The translations under genes were made by a program, and so were the position numbers. Positions 1-33,593 of a stretch of 64,000 nt of DNA are shown here, one piece after another (within the stretch, counting starts at the first letter, position 1; every line of letters starts with the position of its first letter). Origin of the DNA: Rhodophyticola porphyridii (GTDB lineage Bacteria > Pseudomonadota > Alphaproteobacteria > Rhodobacterales > Rhodobacteraceae); assembly GCF_003688285.1 (NCBI RefSeq), contig NZ_RCNT01000005.1, positions 73,106-137,105 of the forward strand, in the 5' to 3' direction. The notes beneath the pieces are model-generated. The model was not told the DNA's origin and ran no database searches. It saw nothing but the letters and a program-made list of their open reading frames with translations.

Positions 1-860
1 AGGCCGTTGCAGGGGATCCCGATATCGACATCGCCCTGATCGTCACGCCCCCCGATGCACGGCTGGAGCTCATTACACCGCTCGCCCGCGCGGGCAAGGC
101 GATCTTGCTGGAAAAACCCGTGGCGCGAAACGCAAGCGAGGCCTTGGCAATCGTCACCCTCTGCGAAGAACTGAACGTCCCGCTCGGGGTCGTGTTTCAG
201 CATCGGGTGCGGGCCGCTTCGCAACACGCGGCGGCGCTTGTGAGCACGGGCGATCTCGGCGCGCTCGGCCTTGTGGAGATAACCGTGCCCTGGTGGCGGG
301 AGCAGGCTTATTATGACGAGCCCGGGCGCGGCACATATGCGCGCGACGGTGGCGGGGTCCTCATTTCGCAGGCAATCCACACGATTGACCTGGCCCTGAG
401 CCTGACCGGGCCGGTGACAGAGGTTCAGGCGATGACCGCGACCACCCGGTTCCACGACATGGAAGCGGAAGATTTCGCCACTGCCGGGCTCAGCTTTGAA
501 AACGGCGCCGTCGGCTCGCTGGTTGCCTCCACGGCCAGCTTTCCCGGAGGCGCGGAGACCATCACCCTCCATTTCGAACGCGCCAGCCTGCATCTGGGCG
601 AAGGCGTGTTGACAGTTCACTGGCGCGACGGCCACAGGGAGACACATGGGGCGGCCGCGGGAACCGGCGGCGGGGCCGACCCGATGGCCTTCACCCATGA
701 GTGGCACAAGGACATTCTGGAGGATTTCGCGGCCGCCTTGCGCGACGGCCGCGCGCCGATGATCACCGGCAGGCAAGCTCTGGAGAGCCACCGCCTGATC
801 GACGCGATTGCTTTTTCCGCGTGTGAAGGTCGTGCCGTAAGCTGCGGGGAAATTTCATGA
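1..860 (+). CDS. Gfo/Idh/MocA family oxidoreductase (5' end outside window)
   Basis: NAD(P)-dependent sugar or sugar-derivative oxidoreductase of the Gfo/Idh/MocA fold. The frame is open from base 3, and the protein enters inside the Rossmann domain at 'DIALIVTPPDARLELI', so the N-terminal GxGxxG is to the left of the window. The family EKP motif is present ('LLEKPVARNA'). It is followed by the C-terminal substrate domain with 'GGGVLISQAIHTIDL', whose His is the usual active-site residue region. The stop overlaps the next gene by 4 bases (ATGA), so it belongs to the operon with the genes at 857-8564. It resembles the third gene here (1861-2946) more than the second. The substrate cannot be read from the sequence. 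An in-frame TTG at 105 is not a plausible start because it lies inside the conserved EKP strand. Confidence 0.9.
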   Translation, partial: AVAGDPDIDIALIVTPPDARLELITPLARAGKAILLEKPVARNASEALAIVTLCEELNVPLGVVFQHRVRAASQHAAALVSTGDLGALGLVEITVPWWREQAYYDEPGRGTYARDGGGVLISQAIHTIDLALSLTGPVTEVQAMTATTRFHDMEAEDFATAGLSFENGAVGSLVASTASFPGGAETITLHFERASLHLGEGVLTVHWRDGHRETHGAAAGTGGGADPMAFTHEWHKDILEDFAAALRDGRAPMITGRQALESHRLIDAIAFSACEGRAVSCGEIS

Positions 861-1864
861 GTTTGCGCTTTGGAGCCCTCGGCCTCGATCATCGGCACAT
901 CTACGGCATGGCGGCGAACATGATCGGCGCGGGGGCCGAGTTCGCAGGCTGGTGGACCGATGGCAACCCCAACACTCTGGACGGGTTCGGCAAGCGCTTT
1001 CCGGGCGTGCCGCGCGTGTCAGACAAGGACGCGCTACTCGACGATCCCGCGATCGATCTGATCCTGATCTCCGCCATCCCCCGCGACCGTGCCGCGCTTG
1101 CCATCTCGGCGATGGAGGCGGGCAAGGACGTGATGGTGGACAAGCCCGGCTGCACCACTTTGGCGCAGCTCGACGCGATCAGGGCCTGTGTGGCGAAGAC
1201 CGGGCGGATCTGGTCGGTGGATTTCTCGGAACGGTTCGAGGTGCCGTGCGTCACCCGCGCCGCCGAACTGGTGGCGGAGGGGGCGATTGGCCGGGTGGTG
1301 CAAACCGTCGGTCTGGGGCCGCACCGGCTGAATCGCGCCTCGCGGCCGGAGTGGTTTTTCGACCGCGGGGCCTATGGCGGGATCCTGACCGATATCGCCA
1401 GCCACCAGATCGACCAGTTCCTGTTCTTCACCGGCTCCACCGATGCCGAGATCACACTGGCTTCGGTCGGGAACTTCGCCAATCGGAAAGATCCCGGTTT
1501 GCAGGATTTCGGAGAGATCGCCCTTCGCTCGGATACCGGGCATGGCTATATCCGCGTCGATTGGTTCACGCCGGACGCGCTGCCCACCTGGGGCGACGGG
1601 CGGCTGACCATTCTGGGCACCGAGGGCTATATCGAACTGCGGAAATATGTGGATGTCGGCGGGCGGGCGGGAACCGATCATCTGCTGCTGGCGAACGGCA
1701 CCCGCTCCGAGATGATCGACGCATCCGATGCGGGCCTGCCCTATTTCGCGCGGCTTGCCCGCGATATCCGCGACCGGACCGAAACAGCAATGCCGCAGGC
1801 CCATGCCTTCAAGGTGATGGATCTGGCGTTACGCGCCCAGGCCATGGCGGAGGGACGCGGGTGA
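857..1864 (+). CDS. Gfo/Idh/MocA family oxidoreductase, divergent type
   Basis: Second of three tandem Gfo/Idh/MocA proteins (335 aa, normal length). The N-terminus reads 'FGALGLDHRHIYGMAANM', which replaces the classic GxGxxG loop with a G-L-D-H-x-H version. The EKP motif is DKP ('VMVDKPGCTTL'). The C-terminal domain has 'GGILTDIASHQIDQFLFFTG', the family's conserved Asp/His patch. The ATG overlaps the preceding stop, and its own stop overlaps the following GTG (GTGA), so translation is coupled on both sides. The altered nucleotide loop and DKP suggest a different substrate or cofactor role from its neighbours, perhaps a tightly bound NAD as in the NAD-dependent glycosidases of this fold. 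That last point is inference. Confidence 0.9.
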   Translation: MSLRFGALGLDHRHIYGMAANMIGAGAEFAGWWTDGNPNTLDGFGKRFPGVPRVSDKDALLDDPAIDLILISAIPRDRAALAISAMEAGKDVMVDKPGCTTLAQLDAIRACVAKTGRIWSVDFSERFEVPCVTRAAELVAEGAIGRVVQTVGLGPHRLNRASRPEWFFDRGAYGGILTDIASHQIDQFLFFTGSTDAEITLASVGNFANRKDPGLQDFGEIALRSDTGHGYIRVDWFTPDALPTWGDGRLTILGTEGYIELRKYVDVGGRAGTDHLLLANGTRSEMIDASDAGLPYFARLARDIRDRTETAMPQAHAFKVMDLALRAQAMAEGRG

Positions 1865-2946
1865 TCCGGGTGGCGATCATTGGCGCGGGGATCGGCGCGG
1901 CCCATCTGGAAGGGTACCGCGCCCTGCCCGATCTGTTCGATGTCCGGGTGCTGTGCGATCTGGACGTGGCGCGGGCACGGCTGGTCGCGGGCGACGGGCT
2001 GGCCATCGCCACGGATTTTTCCGCGATACTCGCCGATGACACGCTCGATCTCATCGATATCTGCCTGCCGCCGCATCTGCATTTCGAGATGTCTGCAGCG
2101 GCGCTTCGGGCAGGAAAGCATGTGGTCTGCGAAAAGCCGATGGTGCGGTCTCTGGCCGAGGCCGATGCGCTGGCCGATGTGGCGCGCGCATCGGGCCGCG
2201 TGTTTTCGCCGGTTTTCCAGTACCGGTACGGTCCCGCTACCGCGCAGCTCGATGCGCTGATCGCCGCGGGTTTGGCTGGCAAGCCGCAGGTGGCGAGCCT
2301 TGAAACCCACTGGAACCGGGACGCGGTCTATTACAAAACCCCTTGGCGGGGCACATGGGCCGGCGAATCCGGCGGCGCGGTCCTGGGTCATGCAATCCAC
2401 AATCATGATCTGCTTGGGCGCTATTTCGGGCCTGTCACGATTCTGAGCGCGCAGGTTGAAACACGAATAAACAGCATTGAAACAGATGATTGCGCCGCAA
2501 TCCTCATGCAGTTTGAAAATGGCGCATTGGCCACCAGCTCGGTCACACTCGGTGCCGCGACAGACACCTCACGGCTGCGGCTGGTCTTCGAGACGCTGAC
2601 CGCGACCAGCGGCACCACACCCTATGCGCCCGCCGAGGACATCTGGACATTCGAGGCGCGCGCGCCGGTTGAGCAAAGTCAGATAAACGCGGTTCTGGCC
2701 ACGGTGCCGGAAGTCAGATCGGGCTTTGCGGGCTTCTTCGAAGCGCTGGCAGAGGCCATCCACGGGCGGCCCGGCCGCGAGGTCACCGGAGAAGACGGCC
2801 GCCGCTCGATCGAGCTGGTCACCGCGATCTATGACGCGGCGCGAACCGGGAAAAGGATTTCTTTACCGCTTGGTACAAACGCGGCACTCTACCAAGGCTG
2901 GCTGCCGGCGCAGGCGGCCAAAGGAAACAAACAAGAACAGAAATGA
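1861..2946 (+). CDS. Gfo/Idh/MocA family oxidoreductase
   Basis: Third tandem Gfo/Idh/MocA oxidoreductase, 361 aa from the GTG at 1861, which overlaps the upstream TGA. The Rossmann loop is intact ('VAIIGAGIGAAHLEGY', residues about 3-18). The EKP motif ('VVCEKPMVRSL') and the C-terminal 'GGAVLGHAIHNHDLLGRYFG' follow in family order. A longer open frame extends upstream to 952 but runs antisense to nothing and overlaps gene 2, so the GTG start is preferred. It is separated from the solute-binding protein gene by 24 bases containing a strong AAAGGGAGG ribosome-binding site. It is probably a sugar dehydrogenase or redox-assisted glycosidase acting on the substrate imported by the ABC transporter downstream. 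Confidence 0.9.
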   Translation: MIRVAIIGAGIGAAHLEGYRALPDLFDVRVLCDLDVARARLVAGDGLAIATDFSAILADDTLDLIDICLPPHLHFEMSAAALRAGKHVVCEKPMVRSLAEADALADVARASGRVFSPVFQYRYGPATAQLDALIAAGLAGKPQVASLETHWNRDAVYYKTPWRGTWAGESGGAVLGHAIHNHDLLGRYFGPVTILSAQVETRINSIETDDCAAILMQFENGALATSSVTLGAATDTSRLRLVFETLTATSGTTPYAPAEDIWTFEARAPVEQSQINAVLATVPEVRSGFAGFFEALAEAIHGRPGREVTGEDGRRSIELVTAIYDAARTGKRISLPLGTNAALYQGWLPAQAAKGNKQEQK

Positions 2947-2970: not shown

Positions 2971-4242
2971 GTGAGACAAAGAATTCTGACAACCACCTTG
3001 CTGACATCGGCAATGCTGGCGGGCGCCGGAGCGGTCTCGGCCCAAGAAGTCCGCTTCATGTGCTATTCCGATGGCAACGAATGCGAAGTCTATGAAGATG
3101 TTCTGAACCGGTTCGAGGCGGAGAACGAAGGCATCACGGTGGCCATCGACGTTGTGCCCTACCAGGCGATCCTTGAGAATCTGCCGGTTCAGCTTGCCGC
3201 CGGCACGGGGCCGGACATCGCCAAGGTCACCGATTTGGGCGGCCTCAACGAATACTATCTGGATCTGACGCCCTATGTGGATGCCGGGTACTGGGAAGCC
3301 AGCTTCGGCGATACGCTGGACTGGTATCGCGGCGGCGATGACCGGCAGGGCATCTATGGTATGCACAGCCAGTTGACGATCACCGGGGCCTTCATCAATG
3401 CCACGCTGTTCGAACAGGCCGGCATCGAGATCCCGGGCGAGGACGCCACCTGGGCCGAATGGGCAGAGGCCGCGCGCGCCGTGGCCGAAGCGACCGACAC
3501 GCCCTTCCCCATGGCGATCGACCGCTCGGGCCACCGGGTTGCGGGCCCCGCGATCTCCTATGGCGCGGCGCTCTTCAACGAGGATGGCGAGGCAATCCTC
3601 GTCGATGACGGGTTCCGGGCCTTCGTGCAGCAATTCGTCGATTGGCACGAAGACGGCACGATGGCGCGCGATGTCTGGGCCGGTCAGGGCGGCGCGACCT
3701 ATCAGGACGCGGCTCAGGAATTCATCAATGGTGAGCTGGTCTTCTACTATTCCGGCAGCTGGCAGGTGGGCCGGATGAACGAACAGGTCGGCGATTTCTT
3801 CGACTGGCAGGTCGTGGGCTCACCCTGCGGTCCGGCGGGGGCGTGTTCCGGCATGCCTGGCGGCGCGGGCATCGTGGGCTTCGCACAGACCGACCACCCC
3901 GAGGCGGTGGCCGCGGTGATCGACTTCCTGGCGCAGGAAGACGTCTATGCAGAAGTGACGGCGCGCACTTCAAACCTGCCCGCACATCTGGGCGTGGCGG
4001 CCGCGGGCGTGACCTATGAGGGCGTCTCGGAAGGTGCGCAGGCGGCGCTCAACGCATTTGCCGGCGATCTGCCCGATGTGGCGCCTGCGGCCTTCGCCTA
4101 TCAGGGCTATGCGGGCAACCGCGCGATGTTCGGCATCACCGTCGAGCGGGTCAGCCAGGCCATTGTCGGCGAGTTGACGGTCGATCAGGCGATGGAGCGC
4201 GCCGCGGCCGATCTCGAAGCCGCCATGGCCGAGACCCAGTAA
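2971..4242 (+). CDS. ABC transporter sugar-binding protein (family 1 solute-binding protein)
   Basis: Periplasmic binding protein of a carbohydrate ABC importer, 423 aa, GTG start with GGGAGG 8 bases upstream. A Sec signal peptide is visible (residues 1-24, cleavage after 'AVSA'). The mature part has the family-1 pattern: an open first strand ('VRFMCYSDG'), 'LPVQLAAGTGPDIAKV' near residue 75, and an Arg/Ser/His-containing stretch 'AIDRSGHRVAGPAISYG'. A Cys pair lies in 'GSPCGPAGACSGMPGG', an unusual feature that could form a disulfide next to the ligand site. Together with the monooxygenase/reductase pair nearby, this kind of binding protein would fit a sulfoquinovosyl-glycerol or sulfoquinovose importer (SmoF type). 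That assignment is inference from context and remembered family resemblance. Confidence 0.93.
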   Translation: MRQRILTTTLLTSAMLAGAGAVSAQEVRFMCYSDGNECEVYEDVLNRFEAENEGITVAIDVVPYQAILENLPVQLAAGTGPDIAKVTDLGGLNEYYLDLTPYVDAGYWEASFGDTLDWYRGGDDRQGIYGMHSQLTITGAFINATLFEQAGIEIPGEDATWAEWAEAARAVAEATDTPFPMAIDRSGHRVAGPAISYGAALFNEDGEAILVDDGFRAFVQQFVDWHEDGTMARDVWAGQGGATYQDAAQEFINGELVFYYSGSWQVGRMNEQVGDFFDWQVVGSPCGPAGACSGMPGGAGIVGFAQTDHPEAVAAVIDFLAQEDVYAEVTARTSNLPAHLGVAAAGVTYEGVSEGAQAALNAFAGDLPDVAPAAFAYQGYAGNRAMFGITVERVSQAIVGELTVDQAMERAAADLEAAMAETQ

Positions 4243-4248
4243 AGTTTT

Positions 4249-4280
4249 GGTCCCGCGCGGTTTTCGGATCGCGCGGGACC
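4249..4280 (+). promoter_or_regulatory. Intercistronic hairpin after the binding-protein gene
   Basis: A perfect 11-bp stem GGTCCCGCGCG / CGCGCGGGACC (4249-4259 with 4270-4280) and a 10-base loop lie 7 bases after the binding-protein stop and 10 bases before the permease start. There is no T run, so it is unlikely to be a full terminator. Such hairpins commonly protect the upstream mRNA, giving more binding protein than permease. A comparable structure follows the TRAP binding-protein gene at 55146-55181. Confidence 0.75.
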
Positions 4281-4290
4281 GGTACGTGCC

Positions 4291-5259
4291 ATGCTGGTGA
4301 TACTCAATCCTCTGATGCGGATCATCGAAATTCCGATGATGGCGCTGCAACGGCTTCTCGGGGTCAATCGGCTGGCCTGGGTGTTTCTGTTGCCCAATCT
4401 TCTGCTGTTCGGGCTGTTCGCCTTTCTGCCCGTCATCCTGAACTTCTCCTATTCGCTGACCGGCGGCGACAATGTGCTGCTGGAGGCGCGGCCTTATGTG
4501 GGCGGGCGCAATTTCGAGACTCTGACCAGTTGCAGCAGCTTTCTCGACCCCAACACCTGTATCGAAGACAAATTCTGGCGCGCGGTCTGGAACACGCTCT
4601 GGTTCGTGACGCTTCAGGTCGGCATCATGGTCGGCTTCGCACTTCTCACTGCGATCATCCTCAATCGCGACATCCGCGCGCGCGGCTTTTTCCGCTCGGT
4701 CTTCTTCTTTCCGGTACTGCTGTCGCCGGTTGTCGTGGCACTGATCTGGAAGTGGATCCTGCAGCGCGAAGGCGTGCTGAACGCATTTCTCGACTGGATC
4801 GGGATCGGCGGGTTCAACTGGCTGATCGACGCGGAATGGGCCTTTGCCTGGACCGTTTTCCTCTCGGTCTGGGCGCATATGGGGTTCTACACGCTGATCC
4901 TGCTGGCGGGGCTGCAGGCGATCCCGCGAGACGTGTATGAGGCGGCACTGATGGACCGGGCTTCGCCCTGGCGAACCTTCCGGCGGATCACCCTGCCGCT
5001 TCTGTCGCCCACCATGCTGGTGGTTCTGGTACTGGCGCTGATCAAGGGGGTTCAGACCTTCGACGAGGTCTATGCCTTCACCGGCGGCGGGCCCGGGACG
5101 GCCACCACCTTCATCATCCAGTACATCTACGAGGAAGGCTTCGCCGGTGCACCGCGGCTCTTCGGCCTTGCGGCCGCCGCATCGCTGCTGGTGGCAATCG
5201 TTCTGGTGATGCTCACGCTGATACAGCTTTGGATCAACCGGAGGAATGTGGATGGCTAA
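4291..5259 (+). CDS. Sugar ABC transporter permease (MalF-like)
   Basis: First inner-membrane subunit of the importer, 322 aa. It has six or so hydrophobic segments starting near residue 25 ('LAWVFLLPNLLLFGLFAF'), a periplasmic loop with three Cys ('CSSFLDPNTC') and the EAA coupling motif 'EAALMDRASPWRTFRRITLPLL' region (residues about 215-236), which docks to the ATPase. The ATG at 4291 follows the intercistronic hairpin. The stop overlaps the next permease gene by 8 bases when that gene starts at 5252. The pair of permeases plus one ATPase is the standard arrangement for CUT1-type oligosaccharide or glycoside importers. Confidence 0.92.
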   Translation: MLVILNPLMRIIEIPMMALQRLLGVNRLAWVFLLPNLLLFGLFAFLPVILNFSYSLTGGDNVLLEARPYVGGRNFETLTSCSSFLDPNTCIEDKFWRAVWNTLWFVTLQVGIMVGFALLTAIILNRDIRARGFFRSVFFFPVLLSPVVVALIWKWILQREGVLNAFLDWIGIGGFNWLIDAEWAFAWTVFLSVWAHMGFYTLILLAGLQAIPRDVYEAALMDRASPWRTFRRITLPLLSPTMLVVLVLALIKGVQTFDEVYAFTGGGPGTATTFIIQYIYEEGFAGAPRLFGLAAAASLLVAIVLVMLTLIQLWINRRNVDG

Positions 5260-6300
5260 TCTCTGGTCGATGCTGACGGCGACACGCAACAAGGGAAGGT
5301 GGGACTGGACCGACTGGGTATCCTACTCCTACCTGTTCCTTGGCGTTTTCCTGATGTTCTTCCCGGTCATCTGGCTGGTCCTTTCCAGCTTCAAGACCGA
5401 GGCCGATTTGCAGCGCTACCCGCCGACTTTCCTGCCTTACCAGCAGGAAACCGTGATGGTGGAGGGTTTTGACGAGCCTTTGCCGCTGTTCCGGATGACC
5501 GCGGGAGACTACGAGGGGCAGACCCTTGCACAACTCCGGCGGGTGGGCTTGCAGGCGCAGATGATCGACCCCGCCAACCCGGCGGAGCGGCTGCGTGTCT
5601 CGATCGACGACAGGGAACCGGTGCAGGGCGTGGCGCTTGCGCTGGAGAACTACACCGGCCTGTTCGAACGGTTCAATTTCCTGCGCTTCTTCTGGAACTC
5701 CACCTTCATCACGGTGACCGCCACGCTCATTATGTTGCTGGTCAATGCGATGGCCGCCTTCGCCCTTTCGAAATACGAGTTCCGCGGGCGGACGACCGTG
5801 CTGCTTCTGGTGATCGGCACGCTGATGATCCCGCAGACGGTGGTGCTGGTACCACTTTTCCTGATCGTGAGCGAGTTGGGCATGCTCAATTCACTATGGG
5901 GGGTGATCATTCCGGGCGCAGCCACGCCCACCGGTGTCTTCCTGCTCAGGCAATACATGATCACGATTCCCGACGAGATCCTCGACGCCGCGCGGATGGA
6001 CAAGGCCAGCGAGTGGAAGATCTTCTGGCGGATCATCCTGCCGCTGTCGGCCCCGGCCATTGCGGTCCTTGCGATCCTTGCGATCATGTGGCGCTGGAAT
6101 GATTTTCTCTGGCCGCTCATCGTGCTGACGCAGTCGGAAAACTTCACGCTGCAACTGGCGCTCAACTCCTTCCAGGGGGAGTTGCAGACCGATTGGTCGA
6201 GCCTGCTGGCGATGACGGTGCTGACACTTCTTCCCATCGCGGCCGTCTTCATGTTCCTGCAAAAATACATCGCCACCGGCATCGCCTCGACAGGAGGGAA

Positions 6301-6304
<4 letters not shown>
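5252..6304 (+). CDS. Sugar ABC transporter permease (MalG-like)
   Basis: Second permease subunit. There are two in-frame ATGs, at 5246 and 5252. I chose 5252 because GGAGG lies 7 bases upstream of it and only 1-2 bases from the other. The protein (350 aa) has a long periplasmic loop (about residues 50-125) between the first and second membrane segments, longer than in typical MalG. The EAA loop follows ('DAARMDKASEWKIFWRIILP', about residue 245). The stop overlaps the ATPase start (ATGA). It forms the translocation pore with the preceding permease. Confidence 0.92.
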
Positions 6305-7382
<1,078 letters not shown>

Positions 7383-7386
<4 letters not shown>

Positions 7387-8564
7387 GGCAAACCTGGCGC
7401 TGGTTCGGGCCCGCTGACCCGATCTCGATTGCCGAGATCCGGCAAACCGGGGCCCAGGGCGTGGTGTCTGCCCTGCATCACATCCCACCCGGGCAGGTCT
7501 GGCCAGTCGCCGAGATCGCCCGGCGCAAGGCCCTGATCGAAGGGACGGAAGACGCGCCCTCCGGTCTCTCCTGGGATGTAGTGGAAAGCCTGCCCGTCAG
7601 CGAGCCGATCAAGACCCGGACAGGTCCGTGGCGCGACCATATCGTGGCCTACAAGGAAAGCCTGAAGGCGCTCGCGGCGACCGGACCGCAGGTGATCTGC
7701 TACAATTTCATGCCCGTGCTTGACTGGACCAGAACCGCCCTGCGCCAGCCCCTGCCCCACGGGGGCACCGCCATGCGGTTCGACCTGACCGATTTCGCGC
7801 TGTTCGATATTCACCTTCTGGCGCGTCCCGGCGCCACCCATGACTATCCCGAAAGCGTACAGGCCGAGGCCGCCAAGCGGCTGCCGGATACGGATACAGG
7901 CCAGCTTGTGGCCAATATCGTGGCCGGGCTGCCTGGCGCTAATGACAGCTGGACATTGGAGGATGTCCGCGGCTTGCTGCTGCGTTATGACCAGATCGAT
8001 GCGGATCGCCTGCGCCGGAACCTGATCGACTTTCTGGGTGAGGTCGCGCCGCTTGCGGAGAGCCTTGGCCTGCGCCTTTGCTGCCATCCAGACGATCCGC
8101 CCTTTCCGCTGCTCGGGCTGCCCCGGGTGATGTCGGACCTGTCGGATTACCGTGCCGTGACGGCTGCCGTGGACCTGCATGCCAACGGAGTTACCTTCTG
8201 CACCGGTTCACTGGGCGTCCGCGTGGATTTCGACCCGGTGGCGTTTGTCGAAGCGCTTGGGCCGCGGATCCATTTCGTCCATCTCAGAAACACACGACGC
8301 GACACGTCGATGGCGCGGCCCGGCTTTACAGAAAGCGATCATCTGGCGGGCGATACCGATATGGTCGCAACGATCCGCGCGCTTCTGGCCGAGCAGAACC
8401 GCAGACAGGCCGAAGGCCGCGATGACTGGCAAATTCCGATGCGCCCCGATCACGGGCACGATCTGCTGGATGATCATGCCCGCGCCTCGCAGCCCGGATA
8501 TCCGCTGATCGGACGGATGAAGGGGCTGGCCGAACTCAGGGGCGTCATCGCGGCCCTGTCCTGA
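7383..8564 (+). CDS. uxuA: Mannonate dehydratase family protein (UxuA)
   Basis: UxuA converts D-mannonate to 2-keto-3-deoxygluconate using a metal-dependent TIM barrel. This 393-aa protein matches the family along its length: N-terminal 'WRWFGPADPISIAEIRQTGA', 'GVVSALHHIPPGQVW', 'CYNFMPVLDWTRT', metal-site 'CCHPDDPP', 'HFVHLRN' and the C-terminal 'RPDHGHDLLDD'. It is the last gene of the plus-strand operon, with a 4-base overlap to the ATPase. No uxaC, uxaB or kdgK is visible next to it, so it may serve another sugar acid produced by the oxidoreductases. The 55 bases after it separate it from a convergent gene. Confidence 0.93.
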
Positions 8565-8619
8565 GACAGGTTTGCAATATCCCCACCGCCGACACACCGC
8601 CCGGCAGCGGCTCAGATGC

Positions 8620-9516
8620 CTATGGCACCTCCTGACCCAAGGCGGCGGTATAGATCTCGAACCATGTCTCCCGGTCCAAATCCACATTAACCGCATCCCC
8701 GATCTTACTGATCCGGTTCAGATTATTGGTTCCCATAACCGGCATGATGCGGGCCGGATGCGCCAGCAGCCACGCCACCGCAACCGCGTCCAGCCCCACG
8801 CCCTGCGCTTCGGCGACGCGGTTCAGCACGACGCGGACCGGCGCGGCCTCCGGTGCGAAGAGCGCCCCGCCCGCAAGGGGCGACCAGGCCATCGGGGGGA
8901 TGCCACGCTCCTGCATCCAGGCGATATCCCCATTGGTGAACGGCACATGATGCAGTACGCTCGCCTCGATCTGGTTGGTCACCAGCGGTGTGGACATGGC
9001 CGATTGCAGCAGCGTCCAGTCATACAACCTGAAGTTCGACACGCCCACCGCGCGCACCTTGCCGGAGGCGACAAGATCGTCCAGCGCCCGGCCGGTTTCC
9101 AAATGATCCATCAAGGGGTCCGGCCGATGGATCAGCAGCAGATCGATCCGGTCCGTCCGCATCAGCGCCAGCGAGCCTTCCACCGAGGCCGTGATATGCG
9201 CGGCGGAGGTGTCGTAATACTTCACCCGTCTGGTGGCGTATTTGCCGATCGGCGCGATAATATCGCATTTGGTGACAAGTTCCACCTGATCGCGCAACTG
9301 CGGGGCCGCGCGAAAAGCGTCTCCGAGGATTTCCTCGGCCCCGTAATCGCCATAGATATCGGCCTGATCCATGGTTGTGATGCCCTGGGCCAGACAGGCT
9401 TCGATCTTGGCCTGAACATGGGCAGGCGAGGTATCCGCATCATCCCCGATCCGCCACATCCCATACACGAGCCGCGACAGAGCAAGCCCGCCGGGCGAGA
9501 GGTCGATCCGCTCCAT
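8620..9516 (-). CDS. Aldo/keto reductase, YdhF-like (candidate 6-oxoglucose reductase, SmoB type)
   Basis: NADPH-dependent aldo/keto reductase barrel, 298 aa. The catalytic tetrad is complete: Asp50 and Tyr55 ('DQADIYG'), Lys83 ('VTKCD') and His130 ('LLIHRPDP'). 'VGVSNF' and the C-terminal cofactor segment 'PVMGTNNLNRI' also fit. The start is taken as the ATG at 9516, which shares one base with the stop of the upstream monooxygenase (TGATG), so the two proteins are made together. In sulfo-SMO clusters a YdhF-type reductase (SmoB) reduces the 6-oxoglucose left after the monooxygenase removes sulfite. Family and active site are directly visible. The substrate is inferred from the pairing. Confidence 0.92.
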   Translation of the reverse strand: MERIDLSPGGLALSRLVYGMWRIGDDADTSPAHVQAKIEACLAQGITTMDQADIYGDYGAEEILGDAFRAAPQLRDQVELVTKCDIIAPIGKYATRRVKYYDTSAAHITASVEGSLALMRTDRIDLLLIHRPDPLMDHLETGRALDDLVASGKVRAVGVSNFRLYDWTLLQSAMSTPLVTNQIEASVLHHVPFTNGDIAWMQERGIPPMAWSPLAGGALFAPEAAPVRVVLNRVAEAQGVGLDAVAVAWLLAHPARIMPVMGTNNLNRISKIGDAVNVDLDRETWFEIYTAALGQEVP

Positions 9517-10670
9517 CACCGCCGCTCCCCCGCGGCCAGCGGTGTTGCCGGCGGCTGATCGGGCACCCGCCCGTAAACCTCAGGCAAAGAACATGTTTCA
9601 AGATGCGGCATCACCTTTTGCCCGAACTGCCTGCATTCCTCCAGATGCGGGTATCCAGAGAAGATGAAGGCCCGGATACCCATCTTCCGATAGGCCTCGA
9701 TCTCGCTGAGCACCTGATCCGTCGAGCCCACCAGGGCCGCACCGCAGCCCGATCGTGCGCGGCCGATCCCGGTCCAGAGATTGGGCTCCACATAGCCGAA
9801 TTTATCAGCCAGTTCCCGCGCCCTGGCCTGATGTGCCACGCCAAGTGAAATGCTGTCATGGGCCCGATCACGGATCAGCTTGCCATAGTCATCGTCAAGC
9901 TTGCTGGTGAGATGTTCGGCATACTCCCGCGCTTCAGCTTCCGTATCGCGCACGATCATATGAACGCGCAACCCGTAATCCAGGGTTCTTCCATATTTGT
10001 CAGCAACTTCGTGGACGTCCTTCATCCTCTGTGCAATCTGCTCCTTGGGCTCGGGCCACATCAGATACACGTCGCAATGCTGGCCGCAGAGCTCAAGCGC
10101 AGCCGGGCTGTACCCGCCGAAATACAGAAGCGGCCCACCCGTCTGATACGGTTTTGCCGGATCGGTGGTCAGCCCCTCGAACTCGTAGACATCGCCCTTG
10201 TAGCTGATCTCGTCCTGGGTCCAGGCCTGTTTCAGGATCTCGACCACCTCGCGGGAGCGTTGATATCTAAGGGAACTTTCGGCTTTTTCGCCCGGGAAAT
10301 CGGACGAGATGATGTTGATGGTCAAGCGCCCCTTTAGCATGTGATCGAGGGTGGCGATGGTGCGCGCGAGCATGATCGGCTGCATCTCCCCGCAGCGGAC
10401 GGCGGCAAGCATATTGATCCGCTCGGTGATCGGCGCGCAGCCCGCAACGAAGCTCAGAGTGTCCTGCCCGACCTGATAGGAACTGGGGCAAAGAATGTTT
10501 CTGAATCCCTGATTTTCAGCCTCTTTCATGATGGCAGAGCAATGCTCCCAACTGGATCTGAGGGAACCGTCGGGCACCCCGAGAAACTGGTAATCGTCGG
10601 AGCAGAGTGCTGCGAACCACGAGATCTCCGCGGCATCCAGGTCGGCTGATGTGACGGGCACAACTGTCAT
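9516..10670 (-). CDS. LLM-class FMNH2-dependent monooxygenase, SsuD-like (candidate sulfoquinovose monooxygenase)
   Basis: Bacterial-luciferase-like barrel of the alkanesulfonate monooxygenase type, 384 aa. I chose the ATG at 10670, which has GAGGATC 5-10 bases upstream and begins 'MTVVPVTSADLDAAEISWF'. An upstream in-frame start would add 14 basic residues. Family signatures are 'NILCPSSYQVGQDTLSF', 'INMLAAVRCGEMQPIMLAR', 'GRLTINIISSDFPGE' and 'LLYFGGYSPAALELC'. These proteins need reduced FMN from a partner reductase, and none is encoded in the window. The gene overlaps the aldo/keto reductase, faces a GntR regulator, and its promoter region holds the likely operator at 10720-10744. The pairing suggests cleavage of a C-S bond in a sulfosugar. 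Confidence 0.92.
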   Translation of the reverse strand: MTVVPVTSADLDAAEISWFAALCSDDYQFLGVPDGSLRSSWEHCSAIMKEAENQGFRNILCPSSYQVGQDTLSFVAGCAPITERINMLAAVRCGEMQPIMLARTIATLDHMLKGRLTINIISSDFPGEKAESSLRYQRSREVVEILKQAWTQDEISYKGDVYEFEGLTTDPAKPYQTGGPLLYFGGYSPAALELCGQHCDVYLMWPEPKEQIAQRMKDVHEVADKYGRTLDYGLRVHMIVRDTEAEAREYAEHLTSKLDDDYGKLIRDRAHDSISLGVAHQARARELADKFGYVEPNLWTGIGRARSGCGAALVGSTDQVLSEIEAYRKMGIRAFIFSGYPHLEECRQFGQKVMPHLETCSLPEVYGRVPDQPPATPLAAGERR

Positions 10671-10719
10671 CTTGATCCTCCCCCGGATGCGCAGTTTCGA
10701 CTTGCGTAGCATCGGGTTT

Positions 10720-10744
10720 GGGGTAGATCAATGGTATATCAATT
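10720..10744. promoter_or_regulatory. Candidate GntR operator between monooxygenase and regulator genes
   Basis: The AT-rich core CAATGGTATATCAATT (10729-10744) lies midway between the divergent starts at 10670 and 10766. TGGTATATCA is palindromic except at two positions, resembling the TGGTATACCA-type sites bound by GntR-family repressors. A second, 25-base near-copy with one mismatch sits at 33569-33593. Confidence 0.6.
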
Positions 10745-10765
10745 TCCGCGCGGGAGGGCGCCGAG

Positions 10766-11470
10766 ATGACCGAACCGGGCGCCTTGCCGGCTTATCTGCA
10801 GATCAGCGAGCTGCTGATCCGCGACATCGCCGCAGGGCGTCTGGCCGACGGACAGCGCCTGCCGCCGGAGCGTCGAATGGCGGCGGATCATGGCGTGTCG
10901 GTGGTGACACTGCGCAAGGCGCTGGCCGAGCTTGAGCGGCGCGACCTGCTGGAGCGCCGGCAAGGCTCCGGCAACACGATCCGGGCGGGACAGAACGCGC
11001 GCGGCCTATATGCGCTCTTTCGGCTGGAACTTCTCAATGGCGGCGGGTTGCCCACGGCGCGGCTGCTTGATCTGCGCAAGATGACCAAACCCGACGACAT
11101 CCCGGATATCGGCAATGTGGTCGATTTTGGCTGGCGTATCCGGCGGCTCAGGTTTCTGAACAAGCTGGCCGTGGCGGTGGAGGAGATCTGGCTCGATGGC
11201 CGCTTCACCGGCGATATCCGCGCCGGGGATTTGAGCCAGTCCCTTTATCTCTATTACCGTGACGCGCTGCGCCTGTCGGTTCTGCGCGCCGATGACAGGG
11301 TGGGCATCGCCGAGGCGCCGGATTGGGTGCCGGACGCGTTCGGCCTTGCAGCGGGCGCCACGACCGGCCTTGTCGAGCGCCGCGCCTGGAGCCAGCATAA
11401 CGAGCCGGCGGAGTTCTCCCGCACATGGTTCGATCCCGCCCGCGCGCGTTACGTTGCGCGGATCAGCTGA
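10766..11470 (+). CDS. GntR family transcriptional regulator with UTRA domain (HutC type)
   Basis: DNA-binding regulator, 234 aa. The N-terminal winged helix is typical of GntR ('LPAYLQISELLIRDIAAG', 'LPPERRMAADHGVSVVTLR', 'LERRQGSGNTI', residues 5-72). Residues from about 85 to the end form a UTRA effector domain that usually binds a small carbohydrate-like ligand. It is transcribed away from the monooxygenase/reductase pair across a 95-base gap holding the candidate operator, so it most likely represses that pair and itself until the substrate arrives. The ATG at 10766 has GGGAGGG upstream. The following Gfo/Idh/MocA gene starts 44 bases after the stop and is probably co-transcribed. Confidence 0.92.
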   Translation: MTEPGALPAYLQISELLIRDIAAGRLADGQRLPPERRMAADHGVSVVTLRKALAELERRDLLERRQGSGNTIRAGQNARGLYALFRLELLNGGGLPTARLLDLRKMTKPDDIPDIGNVVDFGWRIRRLRFLNKLAVAVEEIWLDGRFTGDIRAGDLSQSLYLYYRDALRLSVLRADDRVGIAEAPDWVPDAFGLAAGATTGLVERRAWSQHNEPAEFSRTWFDPARARYVARIS

Positions 11471-11514
11471 CTCCACCCGAATGAACTGACGTTCCACAAC
11501 AGGAAAGAACGCAT

Positions 11515-12594
11515 ATGCGATACGGCATCATTGGCTGCGGCATGATGGGGCAGGAACATATCCGCAATATCCGGCTGCTGCCCGGAGTCACGGTCGCAGC
11601 GATCGCGGAGCCGGACCCGGGCATGCGGGAGACGGCGCGGGCGCTGGCTCCGGATGCCGCGTTTTGCGACAGCATCGCCGAGCTTCTGGCCCGGCGCGAT
11701 ATCGACGCGCTGGTGATCGCCACCCCCAATCATCAACATCTTTCGCAACTGGAGGAAATCGCGGCGACGCGGCCCCTGCCCGTCCTTGTGGAGAAGCCCG
11801 TTTACACCGATCCGGCAGAGGCGCCGCGGCTGGAAAAGCTTCAGGTCAGCTATCCTGCCCTGATCTGGGTTGCATTGGAATATCGATATATGCCCCCGAT
11901 TGCGAAATTCCTCTCCCTGGCCCGGGAAGAGACCGGCGGCATCGCCATGCTGAGCATTCGGGAACACCGGTTTCCGTTTCTCCCGAAGGTCGGGGACTGG
12001 AACCGGTTCAATCGCAACACCGGCGGCACGATGGTGGAAAAATGCTGTCATTTCTTTGACTTGATGCGGCTCACCCTGAACTCGGAACCGGTTCGGGTCA
12101 TGGCCAGCGCAGGGCAGGCCCTGAACCATCTGGAGGAGCGTTATGGTGACGAGATCCCGGATATCTGGGACCATGGTTACGTGATCATCGATTTCGCCAA
12201 CGGAGCGCGGGGAATGTTGGAATTATGCATGTTCGCCGAAGGCTCCCGCTATCAGGAAGAGCTATCGGCGATTGGCCCGCGCGGCAAGATCGAGGCGCTG
12301 GTGCCCGGGCCCGGACGGTTCTGGCCCGCCCATCTGGGCCCCGCCCCGGTGCCGCGCGTGATCGTCAGCCCGCGCATGCCGCAGGGCCCTCGCGAGATGG
12401 AGATTCCGGTCGATCCGACATTGTTGGAGGCCGGAGACCACAATGGCGCAACCTTCTATCAGCACCGGTTGTTTCTGGAGGCTGTGCAGAGCGGCACGCC
12501 GCCCGCGGTCAGCCTGAGCGACGGGATCGCGGCAGTGCGCATGGGGCTTGCCGCGCAGGAGGCGGCGCGCGAAGGACGGGTCGTGACCCTGTGA
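11515..12594 (+). CDS. Gfo/Idh/MocA family oxidoreductase (candidate NAD-dependent glycosidase or dehydrogenase)
   Basis: Fourth Gfo/Idh/MocA protein of the island, 359 aa. It has a clean Rossmann loop 'YGIIGCGMMGQEHI' (residues 2-15), 'VIATPNHQHL', EKP ('VLVEKPVYTD') and a C-terminal domain with 'GGTMVEKCCHFFDLMRL', in which Lys and His are the usual catalytic pair. It is longer in the C-terminal half than the other three. It lies directly behind the GntR regulator of the monooxygenase/reductase operon, so it probably acts in the same pathway. A separate family of NAD-dependent sulfoquinovosidases has this fold, and this protein or the one at 857-1864 are the best local candidates. AGGAAAG precedes the start. 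Confidence 0.9.
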   Translation: MRYGIIGCGMMGQEHIRNIRLLPGVTVAAIAEPDPGMRETARALAPDAAFCDSIAELLARRDIDALVIATPNHQHLSQLEEIAATRPLPVLVEKPVYTDPAEAPRLEKLQVSYPALIWVALEYRYMPPIAKFLSLAREETGGIAMLSIREHRFPFLPKVGDWNRFNRNTGGTMVEKCCHFFDLMRLTLNSEPVRVMASAGQALNHLEERYGDEIPDIWDHGYVIIDFANGARGMLELCMFAEGSRYQEELSAIGPRGKIEALVPGPGRFWPAHLGPAPVPRVIVSPRMPQGPREMEIPVDPTLLEAGDHNGATFYQHRLFLEAVQSGTPPAVSLSDGIAAVRMGLAAQEAAREGRVVTL

Positions 12595-33128: not shown

Positions 33129-33575
33129 ATGACACATCAGGCATTGATCATGCTGGCCGCCGGGATCGGCATTCCGCTCTTGGCGGCGCTGAATGCGCGG
33201 TTGGGTGCGAATATCGGCTCGCCCGCCGCGGCGGCGCTGATCCTGTTCATCGTGGCTTTCGCGGCGACGGCGGTGACGATGGTGCTCAGTGGCGGGACCG
33301 GCGCGCTGGCCGATCTGCCGGATCAGCCCCGGCATCTGTTTCTGGCGGGGTTGCTGGTGGCGTTCTACGTGCTGTCGATCACCTGGGTCGCGCCCACGTT
33401 CGGCGTTGGAAACGCGGTGTTTTTCGTGCTTCTGGGGCAATTGATCTCGGCGGCCGCGATCGACCATTTCGGGCTGTTCGGGGCGCAGGTGGCGAGCCTC
33501 TCGCCGATGCGGGCCGCGGGAATTGTGGTGATGGCCGCGGGCGTCGCCCTGACGCAATTCGGGGCAAGGGGGTAG
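33129..33575 (+). CDS. DMT/YdcZ-type small transporter (DUF606)
   Basis: 148-aa membrane protein with five hydrophobic segments, matching the DUF606/YdcZ half-size members of the drug/metabolite transporter group: 'LAAGIGIPLLAALNARLG', 'PRHLFLAGLLVAFYVLSI', 'NAVFFVLLGQLISAAAIDHFG' region and 'RAAGIVVMAAGVALTQ'. These usually work as dimers, and the substrate is unknown. It follows the HExxH lipoprotein closely on the same strand. Its TAG stop lies inside the 25-base copy of the GntR-type operator (33569-33593). Confidence 0.85.
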   Translation: MTHQALIMLAAGIGIPLLAALNARLGANIGSPAAAALILFIVAFAATAVTMVLSGGTGALADLPDQPRHLFLAGLLVAFYVLSITWVAPTFGVGNAVFFVLLGQLISAAAIDHFGLFGAQVASLSPMRAAGIVVMAAGVALTQFGARG

Positions 33576-33593
33576 AACAATGGTATATCAATT
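33569..33593. repeat. Near-identical copy of the GntR operator from 10720-10744
   Basis: The two 25-base segments differ at one position (base 9: T in the first, A here) and share the 16-base core CAATGGTATATCAATT. This copy overlaps the stop codon of the small transporter gene and ends 18 bases before the convergent uup stop, so it does not lie at an obvious promoter. Confidence 0.75.

What the first reader, a model, noticed from the sequence alone, without database searches (positions are those of the whole stretch)
2971..12594. Candidate oxidative sulfoquinovose pathway (sulfo-SMO) without its usual glycosidase
An SsuD-like FMNH2 monooxygenase and a YdhF-type aldo/keto reductase overlap by stop and start. 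They face a GntR regulator and lie beside a sugar ABC importer. That set is the core of the sulfo-SMO route, in which sulfoquinovose is oxidised to 6-oxoglucose plus sulfite and then reduced to glucose. The catalytic tetrad of the reductase and the monooxygenase family blocks are seen directly. The sulfosugar substrate is inferred. The expected GH31 sulfoquinovosidase is absent, while four Gfo/Idh/MocA proteins are present, which points to a variant pathway.
Basis: partly seen in the sequence, partly recalled or inferred. Interest (0 to 1): 0.8.

Follow-up and report, generated by a model that had tools for sequence, protein, structure and literature searches.

The report
Sulfoquinovose-degrading gene cluster with NAD-dependent glycosidase
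This is an ordinary bacterial gene cluster for eating the plant and algal sulfur sugar sulfoquinovose; the glycosidase thought to be missing is present as an enzyme of a recently described kind, and the less expected part is a sugar importer that may be shared with a neighbouring uronic-acid pathway.

Summary
The headline is wrong: the glycosidase is not missing. The Gfo/Idh/MocA protein at 11515-12594 is a GH188 NAD-dependent sulfoquinovosidase, 66% and 50% identical to solved homologues, with the five checked sulfonate and active-site residues kept. GH188 in Roseobacter sulfo-SMO clusters is published (PMC10755693).

The other three Gfo/Idh genes, the ABC importer and mannonate dehydratase form a separate hexuronate-type operon; 12 of 80 SmoC loci carry any of it.

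The less expected part is transport. 47 of 80 SmoC loci carry a TRAP transporter, absent beside SmoC here. Relatives of this importer sit inside SmoC operons in six genomes, tend to replace the TRAP (TRAP in 6 of 39 importer-bearing against 14 of 15 importer-free SmoC loci), and in six other genomes carry the SmoC-type operator. I read the family as a likely alternative sulfoquinovoside importer, perhaps shared with hexuronides here; that step is inferred.

The parts
9516..10712 (-). SmoC-type FMNH2-dependent sulfoquinovose monooxygenase; likely start at about 10670 (conserved MTVVP)
   Evidence: 79% identical over 383 aligned residues to 7olf and 7oh2; next solved relative 202 against 712 bits
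8620..9519 (-). SmoB-type aldo/keto reductase (6-dehydroglucose to glucose)
   Evidence: 66% identical over 297 residues to 7bbz at 425 bits; next 4r9o 218 and YdhF 210 bits
11515..12594 (+). GH188 NAD-dependent sulfoquinovosidase (SqgA), the glycosidase said to be missing
   Evidence: 66% to 8zn9, 50% to 8qc2 (FlSqgA); R166, L170, K172, E189, H193 (ArSqgA numbering, PMC10755693) conserved
10766..11470 (+). GntR/UTRA regulator, probably of the sulfoquinovose genes
   Evidence: PF00392 and PF07702; divergent from SmoC
10724..10744 (-). tandem-repeat operator AATTGATATACCATTGATCTA, probably bound by the GntR/UTRA protein
   Evidence: one site (up to 3 mismatches) in 79 of 80 SmoC loci, not in L069, which lacks this GntR (the same-genus genome G167 keeps a degenerate site, 20.9 bits); none in 100 shuffles of the window; within 1.2 kb of SmoC in 104 of 124 SmoC genomes, any site in 3 of 171 genomes without SmoC
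2971..4242 (+). solute-binding protein of the ABC importer, candidate importer of sulfoquinovosides and/or hexuronides
   Evidence: PF13416/PF01547; relatives are inside SmoC-SmoB operons in 6 genomes
4291..5259 (+). ABC permease 1
   Evidence: PF00528
5246..6304 (+). ABC permease 2
   Evidence: PF00528
6304..7386 (+). ABC ATPase (UgpC/MalK type)
   Evidence: PF00005; NF008653 470 bits, cut-off 432
7383..8564 (+). UxuA mannonate dehydratase, only PF03786 match in the genome
   Evidence: TIGR00695 444.6 bits, cut-off 199.55
1..860 (+). GfoA, Gfo/Idh/MocA oxidoreductase (5' end lies upstream of the window)
   Evidence: best PDB matches 3q2i and 3q2k, then 8tdi glucuronide-3-dehydrogenase
857..1864 (+). 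GfoB, Gfo/Idh/MocA oxidoreductase
   Evidence: best PDB matches 3u3x and 2p2s, labelled only as oxidoreductases
1861..2946 (+). GfoC, Gfo/Idh/MocA oxidoreductase
   Evidence: best PDB matches 3q2i and 3q2k, then glucose-fructose oxidoreductase

Best explanation
Two adjoining systems. (1) The core of the known sulfo-SMO pathway in its Rhodobacteraceae form: SqgA (GH188) cleaves a sulfoquinovoside such as sulfoquinovosyl glycerol by transient NAD-dependent oxidation at C3; SmoC with reduced FMN and oxygen turns sulfoquinovose into 6-dehydroglucose and sulfite; SmoB reduces 6-dehydroglucose to glucose. The divergent GntR/UTRA protein probably controls both arms through a tandem-repeat operator in the shared promoter. 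Reduced flavin must come from a reductase encoded elsewhere. (2) A hexuronate-type operon: FCD-type GntR, three Gfo/Idh/MocA enzymes, ABC importer, UxuA. The importer probably also brings in the sulfoquinovoside here, because the TRAP transporter that most relatives keep beside SmoC is absent. Enzyme identities are shown by strong sequence similarity; their reactions are taken from the published families; regulation is inferred from co-conservation; the import role is inferred and less certain (about 0.55). The confidence below is for part 1.
For: SmoC 79%, SmoB 66%, SqgA 66%/50% to solved homologues, five sulfonate and active-site residues kept in SqgA. SmoB in 80 of 80, SqgA in 77, GntR in 77 (plus one partial) of 80 relatives. 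Operator in 79 of 80 loci. Importer: same-strand SmoC-SmoB-(SmoA)-importer runs without Gfo or UxuA in G179, G037, G032, G117, G161, G289, in two separate clades of the binding-protein tree; SmoC on the same fetched stretch in 16 of 48 genomes, 6 label changes on the tree; any TRAP beside SmoC in 1 of 16 linked, 5 of 23 assessable unlinked importer-bearing and 14 of 15 importer-free SmoC loci; operator over 20 bits 90-219 bases upstream of the importer's binding protein in 6 of 25 unlinked SmoC-bearing genomes and 0 of 7 without SmoC. Best DctP match in the window's genome is 26% identical.
Against: The window's binding protein groups with importers of the hexuronate operon (G107, G210, G293, G182 just outside its clade; G210 has no SmoC) rather than with the six SmoC-operon ones. 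No operator lies upstream of the importer or of GfoA in the window. Importer-bearing genomes are related, so Fisher values overstate independence; the 15 importer-free genomes (of 82) were picked by hand. Five genomes carry both this importer and the usual TRAP at SmoC, and G159, which has the importer near SmoC, has another kind of TRAP there and no SmoB. 21 of 80 loci show neither TRAP nor this operon, some of them on cut contigs, so other importers probably exist. No SmoA orthologue was found (best about 30%). The operator-like motif has 12 further copies in this genome with no visible link to sulfoquinovose.
Confidence: 0.9

Rival explanations
1. The ABC importer serves only the hexuronate operon; its place beside SmoB is accidental, and sulfoquinovosides enter by an unrelated transporter elsewhere in the genome.
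For: In the window the importer is embedded between GfoC and UxuA; near rows of the tree include genomes with the hexuronate operon away from SmoC (G144) or without SmoC (G210). No operator upstream of it here.
Against: The same family is inside SmoC operons in six genomes, tends to replace the TRAP, and carries the SmoC-type operator in six others, including G144, which lies in the window's own clade and has the importer inside the hexuronate operon.
Confidence: 0.4
2. One reading: a sulfo-SMO pathway lacking a glycosidase, in which the four Gfo/Idh/MocA proteins point to new chemistry.
For: No GH31 sulfoquinovosidase in the window.
Against: One of the four is GH188 by 50-66% identity with conserved residues; the other three are missing from most SmoC loci, and GfoB occurs in 19 of 171 genomes without SmoC (68 of 295 in all).
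Confidence: 0.03
3. The monooxygenase and reductase act on another alkanesulfonate, not sulfoquinovose.
For: NCBIfam's nearest named family is alkanesulfonate monooxygenase (250 bits, cut-off 518).
Against: 79% identity to SmoC-type structures against far weaker similarity to SsuD-type ones, plus near-constant linkage to a GH188 gene.
Confidence: 0.03

Closest known systems
sulfo-SMO (sulfo-ASMO) pathway, e.g. Agrobacterium tumefaciens
   Same: SmoC and SmoB orthologues, overlapping genes
   Different: GH188 in place of GH31; no adjacent SmoA flavin reductase; importer not recognisable as SmoF by sequence; GntR/UTRA regulator (the Agrobacterium gene order is recalled)
Roseobacter-clade sulfo-SMO clusters with GH188 (PMC10755693)
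   Same: SmoC, SmoB and GH188 together, no GH31
   Different: lacks the SmoA and TRAP genes found near SmoC in 47 of 80 relatives; a hexuronate-type operon with an ABC importer lies there instead
Hexuronate (UxaC-UxuB-UxuA) operons
   Same: UxuA in the operon; UxaC and a UxuB-type dehydrogenase lie near the same operon in relatives such as G208, G243, G049 and on another contig here
   Different: three Gfo/Idh/MocA enzymes and an ABC importer are added; substrate not known

Membership tests
sulfo-SMO pathway | SmoC sulfoquinovose monooxygenase | tested here: met
   79% identity to 7olf and 7oh2
sulfo-SMO pathway | SmoB 6-dehydroglucose reductase beside SmoC (SmoB plus SmoC is the criterion used in PMC13372026) | tested here: met
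   66% identity to 7bbz; adjacent
sulfo-SMO pathway | SmoA flavin reductase | tested here: not met
   none adjacent; two PF01613 genes elsewhere; best match to the SmoA of relatives about 30% identical; 15 of 80 relatives also show none nearby, some on cut contigs
sulfo-SMO pathway | sulfite release from sulfoquinovose | not testable with these tools
   needs an assay
GH188 sulfoquinovosidase | full-length similarity to solved SqgA | tested here: met
   66% to 8zn9, 50% to 8qc2
GH188 sulfoquinovosidase | sulfonate-binding R166, L170, K172 and active-site E189, H193 | tested here: met
   all five conserved by position (residues); K107, Y136 and H321 were not checked by position
GH188 sulfoquinovosidase | NAD-dependent cleavage of SQ-glycerol | not testable with these tools
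   needs an assay
SmoF-type sulfoquinovosyl glycerol importer | sequence relation of the binding protein to SmoF | tested here: inconclusive
   no chain so named among 34 matches up to E = 10; I could not confirm which PDB entries are SmoF, and the SmoF paper is not held
GH31 sulfoquinovosidase | GH31 gene in the cluster | tested here: not met
   none in the window

The most novel reading that the evidence does not exclude
One ABC importer family moves between sulfoquinovose and hexuronate operons in Rhodobacteraceae and, in this genome, serves both: the two acidic C6-substituted sugars (sulfonate and carboxylate), perhaps as their glycosyl glycerols, enter through one door, and the Gfo/Idh trio oxidises or cleaves the uronoside at C3 much as GH188 cleaves the sulfoquinovoside.
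Probability: 0.3. Interest if true: 0.5.

Novelty: new member of a known kind. Interest (0 to 1): 0.33.

Why it matters
Sulfoquinovose is made at about 10 billion tons a year (PMC10755693). The comparison here gives a concrete candidate importer family, a tendency for it to replace the TRAP transporter, and a short operator found at SmoC in 104 of 124 SmoC genomes, all testable.

Tried and rejected
AlphaFold model of the binding protein from six sequences: mean pLDDT 41, not used. GH31 as the glycosidase: the genome has two, both on another contig; L128 is nearest the alpha-xylosidase MeXyl31, L129 was not compared. TRAP transporter elsewhere in the genome: best DctP match 26%. Operator upstream of the hexuronate operon: none. 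Literature searches for the Gfo/UxuA operon and for a TRAP transporter of sulfoquinovose gave nothing useful; an early search on the pathway's terms returned nothing. These cover only the open-licence library. The ISME J 2023 Roseobacter paper and the SmoF paper are not held and may already describe the transporters.

Counts (0 of 16, 5 of 25, p 2.7e-8) are superseded.

Papers: PMC10755693, parts 1-3 of 4 of the text; PMC11465081, part 1 of 2; PMC13372026, PMC12890257, PMC12421959, passages only; all other papers, listing only.

Recalled, not from a call: that 7olf and 7oh2 are SmoC and 7bbz SmoB of Agrobacterium or Rhizobium (the PDB labels are generic); that 3q2i is a UDP-sugar-acid 3-dehydrogenase; the gene order in Agrobacterium.
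Full report
What is there. The window belongs to a 3.8-Mb genome in 22 contigs; the named loci with the closest SmoC are mostly labelled Rhodobacteraceae or genera of that family.

The sulfoquinovose part. The 9516-10712 protein is 79% identical over 383 residues to two solved SmoC-type enzymes (7olf, 7oh2) and the 8620-9519 protein 66% identical to 7bbz (the names SmoC and SmoB for these entries are recalled). The 11515-12594 protein is 66% identical to 8zn9 and 50% to 8qc2, an SqgA structure of family GH188. Kaur et al. 2023 (PMC10755693) give R166, L170 and K172 as sulfonate contacts and E189 and H193 among the residues that bind the sugar; all five are conserved at the matching positions. 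The same paper reports near-universal GH188 in the sulfo-SMO clusters of Roseobacter-clade bacteria, which lack GH31. The 'missing glycosidase' is therefore a known enzyme under a generic annotation.

Conservation. Of 80 loci fetched with the SmoC protein (the best 80 of at least 590 relatives), 80 have SmoB, 77 the SqgA gene and 77 the GntR/UTRA gene over most of its length, with a further partial hit in L096. Two of the three loci without SqgA (L089, L096) are contigs that begin less than 350 bases before SmoC. In 295 family genomes, 124 have SmoC at E up to 1e-100. Among 56 SmoC loci taken from these genomes, 53 have SmoB nearby; G159, G065 and G002 do not.

Regulation. The gap between SmoC and the GntR gene holds a tandem repeat, AATTGATAYANNATTGATCTA. 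With up to 3 mismatches it occurs exactly once in 79 of 80 loci and not in L069, which has no hit for this GntR; the same-genus genome G167 keeps only a degenerate site of 20.9 bits. Over 295 genomes (pattern ending YTA, up to 2 mismatches), a site lies within 1.2 kb of SmoC in 104 of 124 SmoC genomes; 3 of 171 genomes without SmoC have any site. G037, where the two operons are separated, has a site before each. I infer that this is the GntR operator; binding was not tested.

The neighbouring operon. GfoA, GfoB, GfoC, the ABC importer and UxuA are collinear with overlaps or short gaps. Parts of this set (50% identity or more) are near SmoC in 12 of 80 loci. GfoB occurs in 68 of 295 genomes at E up to 1e-100, 49 of them with SmoC (28.6 expected). 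In G208, G243, G049, G144, G211, G210 and G107 UxaC and UxuB-type genes lie close by (in G211 the Gfo genes are not on the stretch); here UxaC and a UxuB-type gene are together on another contig, and the only UxuA is in this operon. This points to hexuronate or hexuronide use. GfoA and GfoC match best 3q2i/3q2k; 8tdi, a glucuronide-3-dehydrogenase, is third for GfoA and lower for GfoC, behind glucose-fructose oxidoreductase and others. These are distant similarities.

The importer. 47 of 80 SmoC loci carry a flavin reductase plus a TRAP transporter; none of these has operon genes, and none of the 12 operon loci has the TRAP; 21 have neither, some on cut contigs. A relative of the 2971-4242 protein occurs in 49 of 295 genomes at E up to 1e-80, 42 of them with SmoC (20.6 expected). 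I fetched the neighbourhood in 48 of the 49 (G146 left out). SmoC is on the same stretch in 16. In six (G179, G037, G032, G117, G161, G289) the importer follows SmoC-SmoB(-SmoA) on the same strand without Gfo or UxuA; they form two clades of the binding-protein tree, and the linked label needs 6 changes. A more sensitive TRAP search at the SmoC loci (superseding) finds: linked, 1 of 16 (G159, a TRAP of another kind, with no SmoB); unlinked importer-bearing, 5 of 23, leaving out G144 and G078, whose contigs end just after SmoB; importer-free, 14 of 15, picked by hand from 82. Together 6 of 39 against 14 of 15 (Fisher 1.5e-7). A weight matrix from 53 distinct operator sites finds a site over 20 bits 90-219 bases upstream of the binding-protein match in 6 of 25 unlinked SmoC-bearing genomes (G144, G183, G025, G218, G112, G151) and in 0 of 7 without SmoC. 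Apart from these and the sites at SmoC or GntR promoters, the hits over 20 bits shown for the 48 importer stretches (four best each) and 40 SmoC stretches were two inside SmoB (G037, G127). G151 has both the operator at the importer and the usual TRAP. Together these make the family a likely sulfoquinovoside importer in several lineages.

Limits for this window. Here the binding protein groups with hexuronate-operon importers, one of them in a genome without SmoC (G210), and no operator precedes it. Dual use is an inference from the absence of the TRAP (best DctP match 26%) and from the family pattern. The rows are related, so p-values overstate the evidence. The flavin reductase is unidentified: two PF01613 genes exist elsewhere, the nearer about 30% identical to the SmoA of relatives. 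One PF00174 gene elsewhere might belong to sulfite oxidation (not followed).

Verdict. A new member of a known kind, with a transporter arrangement that deserves a bench test. The confidence of 0.9 applies to the sulfo-SMO plus GH188 core; I put the import role at about 0.55. The corrected TRAP counts did not change these odds.

Noticed in passing
window 33573-33593 (-) and 11 other places in the genome at up to 2 mismatches (17 beyond the SmoC site at up to 3): An operator-like 21-mer (commonest form AATTGATATACCATTGTTATA) is dispersed through this genome, partly inside genes, with unlike flanks; the other 294 genomes hold 17 sites away from SmoC in all. Function unknown.
   Followed up: partly
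L002:10074-10973 (upstream of the window); L034:12575-13474: A hydrolase-like protein lies beside the FCD GntR gene here and directly after SmoC-SmoB-SmoA in several relatives; no Pfam family for the local copy at 1e-5, weak Peptidase_S9 for the relative. An esterase acting on acylated substrates is a guess.
   Followed up: partly
L069:6710-8673, also L087, L046: A BadF-type ATPase/kinase-like gene (PF01869 in L069) and a second gene that looks NagA-like by eye (no Pfam match) follow SqgA in some relatives; role unclear.
   Followed up: no
L002:1027-5976: A sugar ABC binding protein, LacI regulator, GH1 glycosidase and glucokinase (Pfam) lie about 6-11 kb upstream of the window; GH1 and glucokinase are also near SmoC in L100, L046, L053. 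The kinase could feed glucose made by SmoB into glycolysis.
   Followed up: partly
L238 (G159), L206 (G065), L216 (G002): Three SmoC loci have no SmoB nearby; G159 also has a different TRAP directly after SmoC.
   Followed up: partly
G032:C2:68745, G025:C1:186471, G230:C5:164663, G249:C11:68626, G040:C37:8982: Operator sites away from SmoC in other genomes could mark further regulon members; neighbours not examined.
   Followed up: no
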